Of a stretch of 64,000 nt of DNA, positions 45,576-50,875 are shown in pieces. The stretch is from positions 62,001 through 126,000 of the forward strand of contig NZ_JAHBAY010000010.1 of the NCBI RefSeq assembly GCF_018499875.1. Direction: 5' to 3'. Origin of the DNA: Kineosporia corallincola (GTDB lineage: Bacteria; Actinomycetota; Actinomycetes; Actinomycetales; Kineosporiaceae). Numbering within the stretch: the first letter of the stretch is position 1; each line of letters opens with the position of its first letter. Made by a program: the position numbers and the translations under genes. The notes under the pieces were generated by a model. It made no database searches. It saw only the letters and a list, made by a program, of their open reading frames with translations, and was not told the DNA's origin.

Positions 45576-46544
45576 TCAAAGCGTCAGCCCGTGGGCGGAA
45601 TTCGGCGGCACCCGGACACCGGAGTCATCCTCCGGGCGGACGTCCGGGGGTGTGGAACCACCCGTGCGGCGTAGCGCGGTCGCCTGCCGCGTGGGCCGCC
45701 GGATCGCGACCACCGCCACCCCGGCCAGCAGAATCAGGCCGCCGAGCAGCTCGAACCGGCCCGGCCGCTCGTGCTGCACCAGCCAGGCGGTGACCAGCCC
45801 GACCACCGGCACGAGCAGGGTGAACGGCACCACCTGAGCGGCGTTGTAGCGGGCCAGCAGGGTGTTCCAGATGCCGTAGCCGACCAGGGAGGCCAGCACC
45901 GCCGTGTAGAGCGTGGACGCGATGTTGCCGAGCGAGATGTGGGTCAGCGCGTGCCGCACCTCGGCCGGCCCGTCGACCAGCAGCGACAGCGCGACCAGCG
46001 GCACCGGCACGACCAGCGCCGACCAGACCGTCATCGACAGGCCGGACGCCACGGCCGCCCGGCGGCTGAGCACGTTGCCGGCCGCCCAGCTCAGCGCCGC
46101 GCAGACGCACAGGCCGAGCGCGGGCAGCGGGGTGTGCGCCGACCGGCCGACCGCGACCACGGCCAGGCCCAGCGCCCCCAGCCCCACGCCGGCGCAGGCC
46201 CGGCGGCCGGGCCGTTCGTGCAGGGCCACGGCGGCGATCACCACGGTGCCCACCACCTGCCCCTGGAGCACGAGACTGGCCAGGCCGGAGGGCATCCCGG
46301 CGTGCAGCGAGGTGTAGAGGAAGGCGAACTGGCCGAGGCTGAGGAACGTGCCGACCAGCAACAGGGTGCTCCACGGCACGGCCGGGCGGGGGATCAGGAA
46401 CACGGCGGGCAGGAGCACCACGACGAATCTCAGCGCCACGAACAGCAGGGGCGGGAATCCGGACAGGCCCTCGTCGATGACGACGAAGTTCATGCCCCAG
46501 ATCACGGTCACCATCACGGCCAGCAGGGAGTCACGGGTGCTCAC
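45576..46544 (-). CDS. EamA/DMT-family transporter
   Basis: 322 residues with ten membrane helices in two EamA repeats (VMVTVIWGMNFVVIDEGLS opens repeat 1; LCVCAALSWAAGNVLSRRAAV opens repeat 2). These permeases (YdcZ/RhaT-like) export or import amino acids and other small metabolites. GTG 46544 has GGAGG 10 bases upstream and precedes the first helix. It is divergent from a LysR-type gene, the usual arrangement for a regulated exporter. Confidence 0.9.
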   Translation of the reverse strand: MSTRDSLLAVMVTVIWGMNFVVIDEGLSGFPPLLFVALRFVVVLLPAVFLIPRPAVPWSTLLLVGTFLSLGQFAFLYTSLHAGMPSGLASLVLQGQVVGTVVIAAVALHERPGRRACAGVGLGALGLAVVAVGRSAHTPLPALGLCVCAALSWAAGNVLSRRAAVASGLSMTVWSALVVPVPLVALSLLVDGPAEVRHALTHISLGNIASTLYTAVLASLVGYGIWNTLLARYNAAQVVPFTLLVPVVGLVTAWLVQHERPGRFELLGGLILLAGVAVVAIRRPTRQATALRRTGGSTPPDVRPEDDSGVRVPPNSAHGLTL

Positions 46545-46582
46545 CCTGCCAGCCTCCAGGAGCGGACCATGTACGTCCATCG

Positions 46583-46616: not shown

Positions 46617-47543
46617 ATGATGGATCTGGTGGCGTTGCGTTCCCTGATCGCGGTCGACGTGCACGGCACCGTCGCGGCGGCCGCCTACGCCGCCGGCTAC
46701 ACGCCCTCCGCGGTGTCGCAGCAGATCAAGCGCCTGGAGAAGGACCTCGGTGTGCTGCTGCTGGAACGGGTCGGGCGCGGGGTGGTGCTGACCGAGCGCG
46801 GCCGCACCCTGGTGCTGCACGGGCAGGGCATCCTGCGGCAGGTCGAGGCGGCCACCGCCGGGCTGGCCGGTGAGCAGGGCGAGCCGGCCGGGCCGCTGCG
46901 GATCGTGGCGTTCTCCACCGCGGTGCGCGGGCTGGTCGCGCCGCTGCTGTCCGACCTGGCCCGGACCAGCCCGGCGGTGGTGCCGGAGGTGTTCGAGCGG
47001 GACCCGCACGAGGCCGTCGACATCGTCGCCGCCGGGCAGGCCGACATCGGCCTGGTGCACCACTGGGTGGGCGTGCCGCTGCACCGGCCCGACTACCTGG
47101 ACGGCCGGCTGATCGGGTTCGACACCGCCGACCTGCTGGTGCACCGGGAGCACCGGCTGGCCGGCCGCACCGACGTCACCCCGGCCGACCTGGTCGACGA
47201 GCCCTGGGCCTCCACCCCGGTCGGCACGATCTGCCACGGCTGGTTCGTGTACATGTTCACCGGCTTCGCCCGGCCGCCGCGGGTGCGGTACTGGTCGGCG
47301 GAGTTCGCGTCGCAGGTCCGGCTGGTGCAGGAGGGCCTGGCCGTGGCCCTGGTGCCCCGGCTCGGTCGCGGCCGGCTGCCCCACGACGTGGTCGCGGTCC
47401 CGGTGTCCGGGCCGGCGCCGACCCGCGTCCTGGAGATGATCTGGCGGGACTCGATGTCGTCCAGCCCGGCCGTCCGGCACGTGCGTGAGCGGTGCGCGGC
47501 CGTGTTCACCGGCGGCGTCGCGACCCTCGAACCCTCCAACTGA
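46617..47543 (+). CDS. LysR-family transcriptional regulator
   Basis: 308 residues. The N-terminal winged helix (VALRSLIAVDVHGTVAAAAYAAGYTPSAVSQQIKRLEKDLGVLLLERVGRGV) and the two-lobed effector domain (PLRIVAFSTAVRGLVAPLLSDL; ADIGLVHHWVGVPLH) are intact. It is divergent from the EamA gene and most likely controls it in response to the exported compound. Two ATG codons in tandem begin the frame (46617, 46620). A GAGGACGACG hairpin lies at its stop codon. Confidence 0.92.
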   Translation: MMDLVALRSLIAVDVHGTVAAAAYAAGYTPSAVSQQIKRLEKDLGVLLLERVGRGVVLTERGRTLVLHGQGILRQVEAATAGLAGEQGEPAGPLRIVAFSTAVRGLVAPLLSDLARTSPAVVPEVFERDPHEAVDIVAAGQADIGLVHHWVGVPLHRPDYLDGRLIGFDTADLLVHREHRLAGRTDVTPADLVDEPWASTPVGTICHGWFVYMFTGFARPPRVRYWSAEFASQVRLVQEGLAVALVPRLGRGRLPHDVVAVPVSGPAPTRVLEMIWRDSMSSSPAVRHVRERCAAVFTGGVATLEPSN

Positions 47544-47820: not shown

Positions 47821-47841
47821 GGTGAATGAGAGTCATTATCA
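47821..47841. promoter_or_regulatory. Zur/Fur-type metal-regulator box
   Basis: AATGA-GAG-TCATT is a perfect inverted core, followed by ATCA. The actinobacterial Zur consensus has half-sites TGAnAATGA and TCATTnTCA around three bases. Here the right half matches fully (TCATTATCA) and the left half matches in its AATGA core. It lies 87 bases upstream of the GNAT start and is the only such box I noticed in the window. Fur-family repressors block transcription when their metal (Zn or Fe) is plentiful. Confidence 0.65.
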
Positions 47842-47927
47842 AAGCATCGGCTATCGTCATCTCCCGCCGGGCAGCCGCCCGGCCGGGCCCCGGGCCCGAC
47901 CGACGATCACGGGGGACAGGGAAGACC

Positions 47928-48500
47928 ATGGGTGAGGTGCAGATCCGGCCGGCCACGGCGGCGGACCTGGCGGGTGCCGCGGCGTGCATGCGCGAGGTGC
48001 TGGAGACCGACCTGGGCGGCTATACCGAGCGATGGCACCAGGACCTCGACGAGCTGGAGGCGACCTACCTGCAAGCCCCGCGTGCGGCTCTGTTCGTCGC
48101 GGTCGGCACGAGTGGGGACGGCGAGGAGGTGGTGCTGGCCACCACCGCGGTCCGGCCCTGCCTGCTGGCGTCGCCGCCGAACCCGGCCTGGCTGGCCGGG
48201 CGGTACAACCGGCCGGACGTGTGCCAGCTGGTGCGGGTCTGGGTGCGGCCGCGGGCCCGCCGCCGCGGGCTGGCCCGGCGGCTGGTGGCCGAGGCCGCGC
48301 GCTGGGCCACCGGGGCCGGAGGCTACGGCACGGTGTATCTGCACACCGACACCGGAGTGCCCGGCGCGGAGGCGTTCTGGCGCTCGATGCCCACCGTCGA
48401 GGTGCTCGACGCCCGGCCAGATCCTTGGAACACCGTGCACTTCGAGCTCGAGGTGCCGAAACTCCTTACCCTGCACGGGGAACCGGAAGCACTCCGGTGA
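47928..48500 (+). CDS. GNAT-family acyltransferase coupled to a nicotianamine synthase-like gene
   Basis: 190 residues from ATG 47928, preceded by GGGGGACAGGGAAG. GNAT fold: IRPATAADLAGAAACMREVLE at the start, a VRVWVRPRARRRGLARRLVAEAARWA acetyl-CoA site and a C-terminal GAEAFWRSMPTVEVL. Its stop overlaps the GTG of the NAS-like gene (GTGA), so the two are made together. It lies downstream of the metal-regulator box. Inference: it may acylate the NAS product or its precursor, or provide self-protection. The substrate cannot be read from sequence. Confidence 0.8.
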   Translation: MGEVQIRPATAADLAGAAACMREVLETDLGGYTERWHQDLDELEATYLQAPRAALFVAVGTSGDGEEVVLATTAVRPCLLASPPNPAWLAGRYNRPDVCQLVRVWVRPRARRRGLARRLVAEAARWATGAGGYGTVYLHTDTGVPGAEAFWRSMPTVEVLDARPDPWNTVHFELEVPKLLTLHGEPEALR

Positions 48501-49420
48501 GGGCCGGTGAGACCCCGCTGGAGGCGGGCGCGGCCGCGGGCCGGGTGGTCGACCAGGTGGGTGACCTGGCGCTGCTGCACGACACCTCGGTCGACCAAGC
48601 CTACGCCGAGCAGCTCGCCGCGCGCGTCGCCACGATCTACGAGAACCTGCGGCAGCAGCCGGGTCTGGCGCCGTCCACGATGGTCGACCGGCTGTTCACC
48701 GAGCTGGTCGGGCTGTGCGGCGAGGACGGCGGCGACCTGTCGCCCCGGGCCGCGCGGGTGCTCGGCGACCAGCGGGTGGCCTCCCGCCTGGCCGGCCTGC
48801 ACGAGATCTGCGCCGAGGGCGAGTACCTGATGGAGACGCACTGGGCGCGCCGGATCGCCGAGGCGGACAAGCCGCGCGAGGAACTGGCCGGTTTCCCCTA
48901 CCTCGGCAACTACCGCGAGCTGACCCGGCTGGAGATCAACCTGCTGCGCTGCTTCGGCGTGGAACCGGCCACGGCACGGCGGATCTGCTTCCTCGGGGCC
49001 GGGCCGCTGCCGCTGTCCGCGATCTGCCTGTACGAGGAACTCGGGGTGCCGGTCGACGTGGTGGACCGTTCCGAGGAGGCCGTCGTGCTCGGCTCGGCCT
49101 GTGTCAACGCCCTGCTCGGCCGGGGCCGGGTGCGGTTCCACCTGGCCGACGCCGCGCGGTTCGAGCAGGTCGCCGGTGCCGACGTGGTGGTGCTCGGGGC
49201 CCTGGCCGGGCTGGAGCCGGACGCCAAGAACGCCATCCTGGCGGCCCTGTGGCAGCGGCTCGACCCGGGCACGGTGCTGCTGGTGCGCAGCGCGGCCGGG
49301 CTGCGGCGCCTGCTCTACCCGGCCGTGGGCACGCGCGACCTGGGCGGCTGGGAGCAACTCGGGGTGCTGCACCCGCTCAACGACGTCATCAATTCGGTGA
49401 TAGTCCTGCGCCGCCCCTGA
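48497..49420 (+). CDS. Nicotianamine synthase-like protein (CntL-type metallophore enzyme)
   Basis: 307 residues from GTG 48497, which overlaps the GNAT stop. An N-terminal helical domain precedes a SAM-type Rossmann domain: CFLGAGPLPLSAICLYEELG (about 164-182), VDVVDRSEEAVVLGSACVNAL, ADVVVLGALAGLEPDAKNAIL, LLVRSAAGLRRLLYP, and the C-terminal signature HPLNDVINSVIVLRR. These blocks match plant nicotianamine synthase and bacterial CntL enzymes, which transfer aminobutyrate units from S-adenosylmethionine. Bacterial versions usually sit beside an opine dehydrogenase, a racemase and a transporter; none is adjacent here. The metal box 676 bases upstream suggests a zinc- or iron-starvation metallophore. 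Confidence 0.85.
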   Translation: MRAGETPLEAGAAAGRVVDQVGDLALLHDTSVDQAYAEQLAARVATIYENLRQQPGLAPSTMVDRLFTELVGLCGEDGGDLSPRAARVLGDQRVASRLAGLHEICAEGEYLMETHWARRIAEADKPREELAGFPYLGNYRELTRLEINLLRCFGVEPATARRICFLGAGPLPLSAICLYEELGVPVDVVDRSEEAVVLGSACVNALLGRGRVRFHLADAARFEQVAGADVVVLGALAGLEPDAKNAILAALWQRLDPGTVLLVRSAAGLRRLLYPAVGTRDLGGWEQLGVLHPLNDVINSVIVLRRP

Positions 49421-50603
49421 TCACGTCCACGCCCCGGATCACCACGTCGCGCACCCGGGTCAGCGCGGTGACCGAGGCCCGCGGATCGCCGTCCACCACC
49501 AGGAGGTCGGCGTCCGCGCCGGGCGTCAGCCCTCCCTTGACGCCCTCCAGGCCGCAGGCCCGGGCCGACACCGAGGTGGCGGTCGCGATCGCGTCGCCGG
49601 TGGCGATGCCGGCCGCCACCAGCTCGGCCACGGCCAGCGCCACGATGCCGTGCGGTTTGGCCGCGTGGATGCCGGCGTCCGAGCCGCTGATCACCGAAAC
49701 GCCCTGCCGGTGCAGCATCTCGACCTGCACGAAGCGGTGCTCGGGCACCAGGCCGGTGCGCCGGTTGACCTCCAGGGCCTGGGCCGACATCGGGCTGCCG
49801 GGGATCCGGCCGAACGTCGGGCCGACGTGGATGCCGCCCTCGCGCAGCCGGTCCGCCAGGTCGGGTGGGGTCTGCACGCCGTGGGTGGTGAGGCAGGTGC
49901 AGTGCTCGATGCCCTGCACCCCGGCGTCGATGCACAGCCGCACGGCGTCCAGCGAGTGGGCGTGCGCCACCACCGGAAGCCCGTGCTCCGTGGCCCTTCT
50001 CACCACCAGGGTGACGTCGTCGAGGGAGTACTGCAACGACAGCAGGTCCGAGCCCGGCGTCATCGCGCCGCCGCTGACCACGATCTTCACCAGGGCCGCG
50101 CCCCGCCGGGCCCGCTCGTCCACCGCCGCCACCAGCTGATCGGCCCCCGCCGCCTCGCCGCCCATCGCGGCGCAGTGCCCGCCGGGCGTGGTGATCGGCG
50201 GGCCGGAGGCGACCACGGTGGGCTCGTCGGCCGACGAGGTGCGCTCGAGCACCGACCAGCGATGGTCGCCGAGGTCGCGCACGGTGGTCACGCCGGCCCG
50301 GGTGTGGCCCCGCAGCGACTGCCGCACCACCTCCTCCCGCTCGGCCGGGGTGCGGCCGGGATCGCGGCCCAGCGCCCCGTCCCGGCCGTCGGCGATCAGG
50401 TGCACATGGGTGTCGATCAGCCCGGGCAGCAGCGTGCCGCCGTCGTGGTGGCGCACCGTGAAGTCACCGGAAACCGCTGCCGTGCCGGGAATCACGGCCA
50501 GGATGCGGGGCCCTTCGGTGAGCACGGTGGCCCCGTCCGGCCAGAACCGCTCACCGTCGAAGGCCAGGGGGGCGACATGGGCGACACGTTCGGGGGCGGA
50601 CAT
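49389..50603 (-). CDS. Metal-dependent amidohydrolase (imidazolonepropionase/prolidase-like)
   Basis: 404 residues from ATG 50603; a TTG at 50639 would add 12. Amidohydrolase motifs: LLPGLIDTHVHLIADG (HxH), a Lys in VKIVVSGGAMTPGSD (likely carbamylated), VVAHAHS and GIEHCTCL (His ligands) and VISGSDAGIHAAKP (Asp). It hydrolyses amide or C-N bonds with one or two metals. Such dipeptidase-like members (Sgx9260/Xaa-Arg type) are common in actinobacteria. It converges on the NAS-like gene with a 32-base overlap. A link with metallophore degradation is possible but unproved. Confidence 0.85.
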   Translation of the reverse strand: MSAPERVAHVAPLAFDGERFWPDGATVLTEGPRILAVIPGTAAVSGDFTVRHHDGGTLLPGLIDTHVHLIADGRDGALGRDPGRTPAEREEVVRQSLRGHTRAGVTTVRDLGDHRWSVLERTSSADEPTVVASGPPITTPGGHCAAMGGEAAGADQLVAAVDERARRGAALVKIVVSGGAMTPGSDLLSLQYSLDDVTLVVRRATEHGLPVVAHAHSLDAVRLCIDAGVQGIEHCTCLTTHGVQTPPDLADRLREGGIHVGPTFGRIPGSPMSAQALEVNRRTGLVPEHRFVQVEMLHRQGVSVISGSDAGIHAAKPHGIVALAVAELVAAGIATGDAIATATSVSARACGLEGVKGGLTPGADADLLVVDGDPRASVTALTRVRDVVIRGVDVIRGGAGLSPN

Positions 50604-50875
50604 GGGCCCAGTCTCCGGAACGGGCCGCACCGTGATCAAGTGCGTACGGAGTGATGATGGACAAGTCCCGGCCCTGGTTCCGGCGGGGCCGTGGTGCGCG
50701 GCTCAGGTCGCCCGGCGACCGCCGGGCGCATCGGTGAGCACCCGGAATCCCGCCGAAGTCGCAGGTCGACCGGGGGCAGCAGGTCGGCGCCCGGGAGGCA
50801 AGGCCTGTCCGGACAGCAATTGGCGTGCCTACCCTCGCTGCACCTGGACCGGTGGCGGAGAGGCGTGGTGTCTTC

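What the first reader, a model, noticed from the sequence alone, without database searches (positions are those of the whole stretch)
47821..49420. Two-gene GNAT + nicotianamine synthase-like operon behind a Zur/Fur-like box
The NAS-like protein carries the signature blocks of nicotianamine synthases (CFLGAGPLPLSAI, LLVRSAAGLRRLLYP, HPLNDVINSV). It is translationally coupled (GTGA) to a GNAT enzyme, and a near-consensus Zur-type palindrome lies 87 bases before the first gene. Known bacterial NAS-type metallophores (staphylopine, pseudopaline) use an opine dehydrogenase next to CntL; none is here, nor a transporter or histidine racemase. An acylated nicotianamine-like metallophore, made under zinc or iron limitation, would be a new variant. 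The pathway itself is inference.
Basis: partly seen in the sequence, partly recalled or inferred. Interest (0 to 1): 0.85.

Follow-up and report, generated by a model that had tools for sequence, protein, structure and literature searches.

The report
Zinc-starvation operon making nicotianamine-type chelator
A soil bacterium appears to switch on, when zinc runs short, a two-gene operon whose second gene resembles the plant enzyme that makes the metal carrier nicotianamine, and whose first gene is an acetyltransferase of unknown task.

Summary
Window 47928-48500 (GNAT) and 48497-49420 (nicotianamine synthase, PF03059, E 4e-51) overlap by GTGA behind a Zur-type box at 47821-47841; the host is a Kineosporia. 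The box is not chance: its core TGANAATGANNNTCA has 7 exact places in the 8.2 Mb genome (0.23 expected), among them the promoters of a Fur-family gene in a zur-like setting, of a znuA-type gene and of an NRPS cluster. It is kept in 6 of 6 Kineosporia. In Pseudosporangium the pair is the tail of a znuACB operon. Among 23 NAS genomes found, GNAT lies directly before NAS in 14 and converges with it in one; 8 have none beside NAS. In 354 Micromonosporaceae genomes the close GNAT is in exactly the 7 that have NAS. NAS keeps the catalytic Glu and Tyr and, by spacing, the extra Glu and loop tied to true nicotianamine synthesis. No opine dehydrogenase was found. The GNAT's task is inferred: sister GNATs sit in or beside Nik/Cnt-type importers in 12 of 16 loci read, so it may acylate the chelator or its azetidine fragment. 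Verdict: a new, zinc-controlled variant of NAS-type metallophore systems; product and acylation unproven.

The parts
47821..47841 (.). Zur-type operator GGTGAATGAGAGTCATTATCA (other strand TGATAATGACTCTCATTCACC)
   Evidence: conserved in 6 of 6 Kineosporia genomes
47852..47857 (+). possible -10 element TATCGT just after the box (a guess by eye)
   Evidence: short partly conserved block after the box in the Kineosporia promoter alignment
47928..48500 (+). GNAT family N-acetyltransferase, 190 aa, first gene
   Evidence: PF00583 E 2.8e-11; AlphaFold2 pLDDT 93.6, GNAT fold
48497..49420 (+). nicotianamine synthase-type protein, 307 aa, GTG start overlapping the GNAT stop
   Evidence: PF03059 E 4.1e-51; model pLDDT 88.6, best solved match MtNAS 3fpe, TM 0.76/0.87
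49389..50639 (-). convergent prolidase-like amidohydrolase overlapping the NAS 3' end by 32 bases (true start may be 50603); conserved neighbour, role unknown
   Evidence: PF01979 E 4.5e-29; NF051886 153 bits, cut-off 500, so not a member of that model; near NAS in Kineosporia, G003 and Micromonosporaceae
46617..47543 (+). LysR-type regulator upstream; kept in six Kineosporia, no hit at E 1e-20 in nine loci of other groups; probably not part of the system
   Evidence: PF03466 and PF00126; conservation
45576..46574 (-). EamA/DMT transporter divergent from LysR; candidate exporter only, no Zur-type box found near it
   Evidence: PF00892; conservation as for LysR; box scan

Best explanation
It is a zinc-starvation operon. 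With enough zinc, Zur sits on the box at 47821-47841 and blocks the promoter. In zinc shortage GNAT and NAS are made together. NAS joins aminocarboxypropyl units of S-adenosylmethionine into nicotianamine or a near relative, a zinc ligand that is secreted as a zincophore or used to hold zinc in the cell. The GNAT puts an acyl (probably acetyl) group on an amine of that ligand or of a fragment of it. This would take the place that the opine dehydrogenase CntM has in staphylopine-type pathways, or weaken metal binding so that the ligand is kept idle or gives up its zinc. Shown by computation: the operon, the operator and its sharing with zinc-uptake genes, the conserved pairing, the NAS fold and active-site residues. 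Inferred: Zur binding and repression, the product, secretion, and everything about the GNAT substrate.
For: Operator: 7 exact core sites genome-wide against 0.23 expected. They lie before a Fur-family gene (PF01475) with recO-, uppS- and glyS-like genes by eye; before a znuA-type gene; before a Nik/Opp-type ABC operon and at the divergent promoter of an NRPS cluster with a thiazolinyl imide reductase; between a methyltransferase and a LysR gene upstream of an anchored-repeat metal ABC transporter; before a surface-repeat-like gene downstream of it (no Pfam family); and before this operon. The box is the longest run of identical columns in six Kineosporia promoters. Three genomes of group g6 (same family) have NAS without GNAT but with a 2-mismatch box of their own before NAS. 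Pseudosporangium has znuA-znuC-znuB-znuB'-ArsR-GNAT-NAS; G847 has znuACBB', ArsP_1, DUF1980 and YibE around the pair, G291 has zur-znuCAB, G002 has NAS-ArsP_1-DUF1980. Pairing: the close GNAT (289-315 bits) is in exactly the 7 NAS-bearing genomes of 354, next best 199 bits. NAS: E113 and Y139 align without gaps with MtNAS E81 and Y107; E109, E113, Y135, Y139 and G238 are invariant in 22 of 22 rows. E109 has the spacing of AtNAS1 E73, and the loop at 237-240 lies where MtNAS and CntL have a gap. GNAT: sister genes sit in or beside Nik/Opp/Cnt-type importers in 12 of 16 loci read.
Against: No expression, binding or product data. Eight of 23 NAS genomes have no such GNAT beside NAS, and group g6 is nested in the tree inside GNAT-bearing relatives (branch 88/96, midpoint root), so the GNAT is not needed for NAS to be under a Zur-type box. 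The Dactylosporangium-type pair (L097) has a DtxR/IdeR-like rather than a Zur-like block, so iron may matter there. No importer or exporter is in the operon here. NAS genomes G151, G667, G468 and G415 show no zinc link in the stretches read. The GNAT substrate cannot be read from its fold: matches are generic. No plant NAS was aligned here; the match to AtNAS1 positions rests on residue spacing and published passages, and the loop letters differ (Asp or Glu at position 240 in Kineosporia, mostly Thr elsewhere).
Confidence: 0.6

Rival explanations
1. The GNAT is a self-protection enzyme. It acetylates azetidine-2-carboxylate (AZC/AZE), the toxic proline analogue that is the ring of nicotianamine and may arise as a NAS side product or breakdown product. 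The ligand itself is plain nicotianamine.
For: [quoted passage not shown] Three NAS-less genomes carry a sister GNAT near a HAD protein whose second-best PDB relative is L-azetidine-2-carboxylate hydrolase (3smv, E 5e-24), FAD amine oxidases, and in one or two of them an aminotransferase, an SSADH-like enzyme and a Nik-type importer. That HAD was found at E up to 1e-25 in 3 of 47 genomes tested, exactly those three. An EamA/DMT gene lies near the operon here. The convergent amidohydrolase is prolidase-like.
Against: Free AZC is not given as a NAS product in anything read here. No enzyme named as an AZC acetyltransferase is among the 60 of 114 PDB matches listed for the GNAT profile. NAS genomes without the GNAT exist. 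The HAD's relatives include haloacid dehalogenases, and none of the NAS genomes tested has it.
Confidence: 0.2
2. The GNAT acts on incoming metal chelates: it acetylates nicotianamine-type ligands after import so that they release zinc, and pairs with NAS because the cell recycles its own ligand.
For: Sister GNATs directly follow the ATPase gene of Nik/Opp-type importer operons in 6 of 10 NAS-less Micromonosporaceae loci read (L130-L133, L135, L139) and are divergent from one in 2 more (L136, L137); 10 of 41 such loci were read. L135 also has the ArsP_1-DUF1980 pair after the GNAT. In Pseudosporangium GNAT-NAS is the tail of a znu operon.
Against: Nothing shows that the imported substrate is a nicotianamine-type ligand; Nik/Opp-type transporters carry many things. 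In Kineosporia no importer adjoins the pair. A Micromonosporaceae operator matrix found no convincing site before these importers: one weak site (L130, 13.1, threshold 13), while L136 and L137 show sites of equal score elsewhere.
Confidence: 0.25
3. NAS makes a different aminocarboxypropyl compound (thermonicotianamine- or xNA-like, from glutamate or histidine), not nicotianamine.
For: [quoted passage not shown] The closest solved structure is MtNAS, a thermonicotianamine synthase.
Against: The features reported as tied to nicotianamine-making enzymes (E73 and the VGMD loop of AtNAS1) have counterparts here by position; the loop is missing in MtNAS and CntL, and MtNAS has Gly where E109 aligns.
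Confidence: 0.25
4. The GNAT is an unrelated acetyltransferase that happens to share the zinc-controlled promoter, and the pairing is inherited by descent or transferred as a block without a biochemical link.
For: Eight NAS genomes lack it beside NAS; GNATs are abundant (29-203 first-look candidates per genome among those listed with values, fewer in the smallest); the convergent amidohydrolase travels along too.
Against: Overlapping stop and start in the window, in three other Kineosporia and in Pseudosporangium; conservation across two families although the NAS proteins are only about 41-47 percent identical between them and the GNATs 58-62 percent; exact co-occurrence in 354 genomes.
Confidence: 0.2

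Closest known systems
Staphylopine / pseudopaline / bacillopaline systems (CntL-CntM, with or without CntK)
   Same: NAS-family enzyme using SAM and a link to zinc uptake. Some opine zincophore clusters also carry a predicted acetyltransferase (8 in SSN cluster 1, 4 in cluster 6), and Vibrio CntM2 genes are always followed by an N-acyltransferase gene (PMC7438024, passages and section 7).
   Different: No PF10100 match in the genome, whereas in that survey every cluster but the Vibrio cluster 7 had NAS directly upstream of CntM. CntL is a distant relative (E 0.16 by single sequence; NF033601 15 bits, cut-off 350). GNAT precedes NAS; no transporter in the operon.
Plant and fungal nicotianamine synthases
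   Same: Same Pfam family over the whole profile, counterparts of the AtNAS1 catalytic Glu and Tyr, of E73 and of the VGMD loop by position. A published NAS history is rooted with Actinobacteria (PMC12454661, results section).
   Different: Bacterial operon behind a Zur-type box, overlapping a GNAT gene; no plant sequence was aligned here.
Thermonicotianamine synthase MtNAS (Methanothermobacter)
   Same: Closest solved structure (Foldseek TM 0.76/0.87, rmsd 2.5, 25 percent identity).
   Different: MtNAS has Gly where E109 aligns and lacks the inserted loop.
AZE synthase clusters (AzeJ/VioH) with N-acetyltransferases and DMT transporters
   Same: SAM-derived azetidine chemistry with an adjacent N-acetyltransferase (PMC11794875, passages).
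   Different: AzeJ and VioH resemble class I methyltransferases and were not compared here; there the acetyltransferase is proposed for detoxification.
Coelibactin-type Zur-controlled zincophores of actinomycetes (recalled)
   Same: The same genome has an NRPS cluster with thiazolinyl imide reductase behind the same kind of box.
   Different: NRPS chemistry on another contig; no NAS there.

Membership tests
Nicotianamine synthase family (PF03059) | Full-length match over the curated cut-off | tested here: met
   174 bits against 27.1, profile 5-271 of 276
Nicotianamine synthase family (PF03059) | Catalytic Glu and Tyr (AtNAS1 E77 and Y106; MtNAS E81 and, recalled, Y107) | tested here: met
   E113 and Y139 align with MtNAS E81 and Y107; both invariant in 22 of 22 rows
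True nicotianamine-making NAS | Glu at AtNAS1 position 73 and the VGMD loop | tested here: inconclusive
   E109 (spacing as E73 to E77) invariant in 22 of 22; loop present with invariant Gly and absent in MtNAS and CntL, but its letters differ from VGMD and no plant NAS was aligned
True nicotianamine-making NAS | Makes nicotianamine from three SAM | not testable with these tools
   needs enzyme assay and mass spectrometry
Opine-type zincophore systems (Cnt) | Opine dehydrogenase CntM (PF10100) | tested here: not met
   0 matches at E up to 1 in the genome, which is 97 percent complete
Opine-type zincophore systems (Cnt) | CntL equivalog | tested here: not met
   NF033601 15.3 bits, cut-off 350
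Opine-type zincophore systems (Cnt) | Histidine racemase CntK | not tested
   no genome search made; none in the two-gene operon
Opine-type zincophore systems (Cnt) | Importer or exporter within the cluster | tested here: inconclusive
   none in the operon; a divergent EamA gene starts 1.35 kb before the GNAT
Zur regulon | Operator shared with zur-like and znuA-type promoters of the same genome | tested here: met
Zur regulon | Zinc-dependent Zur binding and repression | not testable with these tools
   needs gel shift and transcript assay
GNAT acetyltransferases | Acyl-CoA-binding motif R/Q-x-x-G-x-G/A (recalled) and fold | tested here: met
   PF00583 over its cut-off, RRRGLA in the sequence, fold search

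The most novel reading that the evidence does not exclude
Soil actinobacteria are a source of nicotianamine itself, made as a Zur-controlled answer to zinc shortage. They carry a hitherto unnamed family of metallophore N-acetyltransferases that cap nicotianamine-type chelators, in place of opine dehydrogenase in producers and as a metal-release or disarming step in cells that import such chelates through Nik/Cnt-type transporters.
Probability: 0.3. Interest if true: 0.87.

Novelty: new variant of a known kind. Interest (0 to 1): 0.7.

Why it matters
Plants depend on nicotianamine. A 2025 study infers that plants gained NAS genes several times from microbes, roots its NAS history with Actinobacteria, and speaks of scant knowledge of NAS among bacteria (PMC12454661). 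If actinobacteria make nicotianamine under Zur control, the early job of NAS may have been zinc scavenging, and this can be tested in culturable soil genera. A GNAT where other systems have an opine dehydrogenase would be a second way to tailor NAS-derived ligands. A GNAT family riding with metal-chelate importers gives a concrete candidate for how imported chelators give up their metal.

Tried and rejected
Chance box: rejected. Iron rather than zinc: no iron context was seen for Kineosporia, but it is kept open for the Dactylosporangium-type pair, whose promoter has a DtxR-like palindrome (the DtxR consensus is recalled). CntL/CntM membership: rejected. Phage or plasmid carriage: protein search of phages gave no match, of plasmids only two Halocatena records without a GNAT among the nine features shown. 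GNAT substrate from fold: uninformative. EamA-LysR as part of the system: both are kept in all six Kineosporia, but neither has a hit at E 1e-20 in nine loci of other groups, so they are treated as neighbours. Zur-like sites beside sister GNATs: weak ones in L130 and L134 only at a sensible place; L136 and L137 have sites of like score elsewhere, and no chance rate was computed for that seven-site matrix. One natural-history paper that holds both 'nicotianamine synthase' and 'GNAT' was checked: the GNAT there is the AHL synthase fold, not a NAS partner (PMC1282579, passages).

Literature negative: in the titles and abstract starts listed (20 of 67 listed; 10 of 24), 66, 83, 94 and 98 I saw no paper on a GNAT paired with a bacterial nicotianamine synthase outside opine clusters, or on Zur control of an actinobacterial NAS. 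Only open-licence papers are held, and most hits were not opened.

Biases: the list of 'zinc genes' (znu, zur, ArsP_1, DUF1980, YibE, CobW) was drawn up after seeing the neighbourhoods, and the zinc link of the last four is recalled; the ORF caller is home-made and misses some genes; genomes within a genus are not independent; 2 of the 9 rows of the GNAT profile A3 are from 2 of the 7 co-occurring genomes; alignment A4 has 22 rows because the split NAS of G012 was left out, and several rows start at guessed codons; in alignment A2 the L022 row was read in a wrong frame and was left out of A3 and A5. Of the 16 sister loci, importer genes were checked against families for nine and otherwise named by eye.

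Full report
What is there. The window comes from a Kineosporia: the other genomes of its genus group include K. mesophila, K. babensis and K. rhizophila (whose contig lengths equal those). Two genes overlap by GTGA: a GNAT at 47928-48500 and a nicotianamine synthase-type protein at 48497-49420. The NAS matches PF03059 at 174 bits (cut-off 27.1) over nearly the whole profile. It is the only PF03059 match in the 8.2 Mb genome at E up to 0.01. A convergent prolidase-like amidohydrolase overlaps its 3' end by 32 bases.

The box is a Zur box by context. A 21-base Zur-like pattern has 9 places in the genome with up to 3 mismatches and none for the pattern read backwards. The core TGANAATGANNNTCA has 7 exact places, control 0, where 0.23 are expected from composition. 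The seven are: before a Fur-family gene with recO-, uppS- and glyS-like genes by eye, which I recall as the usual actinobacterial zur setting; before a znuA-type gene; before a Nik/Opp-type ABC operon and at the divergent promoter of an NRPS cluster with a thiazolinyl imide reductase; between a methyltransferase and a LysR gene, upstream of an anchored-repeat metal ABC transporter; before a surface-repeat-like gene downstream of that transporter (no Pfam family); and before this operon. In six Kineosporia promoters the box is the longest run of identical columns.

The pairing is conserved. NAS is uncommon: 15 of 396 genomes of the order, 3 of 396 of a phylum sample, 7 of 354 Micromonosporaceae, which makes 23 distinct genomes. 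GNAT lies directly upstream on the same strand in 14 of these (six Kineosporia, G003 with a fragment at a contig end, seven Micromonosporaceae) and converges with NAS in one more, G151. Eight have none beside NAS: G010, G011, G012, G002, G667, G468, G415, G291. The GNAT stop and NAS start overlap in the window, in three of five other Kineosporia by my start calls, and in Pseudosporangium. In the 354 Micromonosporaceae the GNAT profile is bimodal: 289-315 bits in exactly the seven NAS genomes, then 199 bits and less in 41 others. Two of the seven are in the profile itself. The amidohydrolase is near NAS in the same 14 loci, about 3 kb away in one and cut by the contig end in another.

The zinc context recurs. 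Pseudosporangium ferrugineum has znuA-znuC-znuB-znuB'-ArsR-GNAT-NAS. G847 has znuACBB', ArsP_1, DUF1980, amidohydrolase, NAS, GNAT and YibE together; G291 has zur-znuCAB, YibE, ArsP_1 and DUF1980 around NAS; G002 has NAS-ArsP_1-DUF1980; G1056 has a Fur-family gene and ArsP_1 near the pair; G010 and G011 have NAS followed by YibE, with CobW in G011. Three group g6 genomes have a 2-mismatch Zur-like box before NAS. Five of seven Micromonosporaceae GNAT promoters share an AT-rich block like the znuA operators of L041 and L102, and L101 has a weaker one. Counting an operator or such a neighbour, 17 of 23 genomes show a zinc link. Six do not: G003 (contig end), G917 (DtxR-like block instead), G151, G667, G468, G415. 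The criteria were set after looking.

What NAS makes. The AlphaFold2 model (pLDDT 88.6) fits MtNAS 3fpe (TM 0.76/0.87, rmsd 2.5) better than CntL (TM on the query 0.58-0.63). E113 and Y139 align without gaps with MtNAS E81 and Y107. E109, E113, Y135 and Y139 are invariant in 22 of 22 relatives. In passages of PMC10248798, AtNAS1 E77 and Y106 are essential, and E73 and 206-VGMD-209 are needed and described as conserved among enzymes that make nicotianamine. E109 has the spacing of E73, and the loop at 237-240 (AGLE here, VGxx in most others) fills a place where MtNAS and CntL have a gap. So nicotianamine itself is the likeliest product. This is inference: no plant sequence was aligned and the loop letters are not the plant ones.

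What the GNAT does. The fold is ordinary GNAT. Its context is the clue. Sixteen NAS-less loci with a sister GNAT were read: all 6 found outside the NAS genomes of the order and 10 of the 41 in Micromonosporaceae. Nik/Opp/Cnt-type importers are in or beside 12. Of the other four, L104 has a znu-type system (ZnuA confirmed), L108 a siderophore-type ABC by eye, L134 a five-gene operon with an ATP-grasp ligase, a DUF364 protein (named 'putative heavy-metal chelation' in Pfam), a cysteine-synthase-like gene by eye and an enolase-superfamily gene behind a Zur-like site, and L138 nothing of note. Three loci carry a HAD related to azetidine-2-carboxylate hydrolase with FAD oxidases and, in some, aminotransferase, SSADH-like and tartrate dehydrogenase-like genes, which could be a route for breaking down nicotianamine. 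These facts fit a GNAT that acts on a metal chelator or its azetidine fragment. They do not tell acylated zincophore, metal release and AZC detoxification apart.

Literature seen. PMC7438024: passages and section 7; it reports predicted acetyltransferases in some opine zincophore clusters and says that a CntM-based search misses zincophores made without CntM. PMC12454661: abstract and the results section. PMC10248798, PMC11794875 and PMC1282579: passages. All others: search listings only.

Verdict. The finding stands and grows stronger: a zinc-linked nicotianamine-synthase operon behind a Zur-type box, without opine dehydrogenase, with a conserved GNAT partner. The acylated product remains a hypothesis.

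Noticed in passing
L033/L034/L066 (own genome contig C22, about 54-99 kb): A large zinc-linked region: Nik/Opp-type ABC operon, NRPS cluster with thiazolinyl imide reductase (coelibactin- or yersiniabactin-like, recalled), and an anchored-repeat metal ABC transporter with surface-repeat proteins, with four exact Zur-type core sites.
   Followed up: partly
L105, L106, L107: NAS-less genomes with a sister GNAT near a HAD related to azetidine-2-carboxylate hydrolase, FAD amine oxidases, Nik-type ABC genes, a His-rich CDF metal exporter (L105, L107), and aminotransferase, SSADH-like and tartrate dehydrogenase-like genes in some: a possible nicotianamine or azetidine-2-carboxylate breakdown pathway.
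   Followed up: partly
L134:6905-11480 (minus strand): Operon of ATP-grasp L-amino acid ligase, DUF364 protein, cysteine-synthase-like protein, enolase-superfamily protein and sister GNAT, with a Zur-like site shortly before the first gene; may be an undescribed small-molecule metallophore cluster.
   Followed up: partly
L097, GNAT promoter upstream of position 1595 (minus strand; Dactylosporangium-type pair): The GNAT-NAS promoter carries a DtxR/IdeR-like palindrome (TTAAGGTTAGCCTCACTTAA) instead of a Zur-like one, suggesting a switch of metal control.
   Followed up: no
window 49389-50639 and same place in L041, L043, L098-L102: Prolidase-like amidohydrolase convergent with NAS in two families; conserved enough to suggest a role in handling the ligand or a proline-like fragment.
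   Followed up: partly
L135:4908-12228: Nik-type importer operon with the sister GNAT after its ATPase gene, followed by an ArsP_1-DUF1980 permease pair, a set that recurs near zinc genes.
   Followed up: partly
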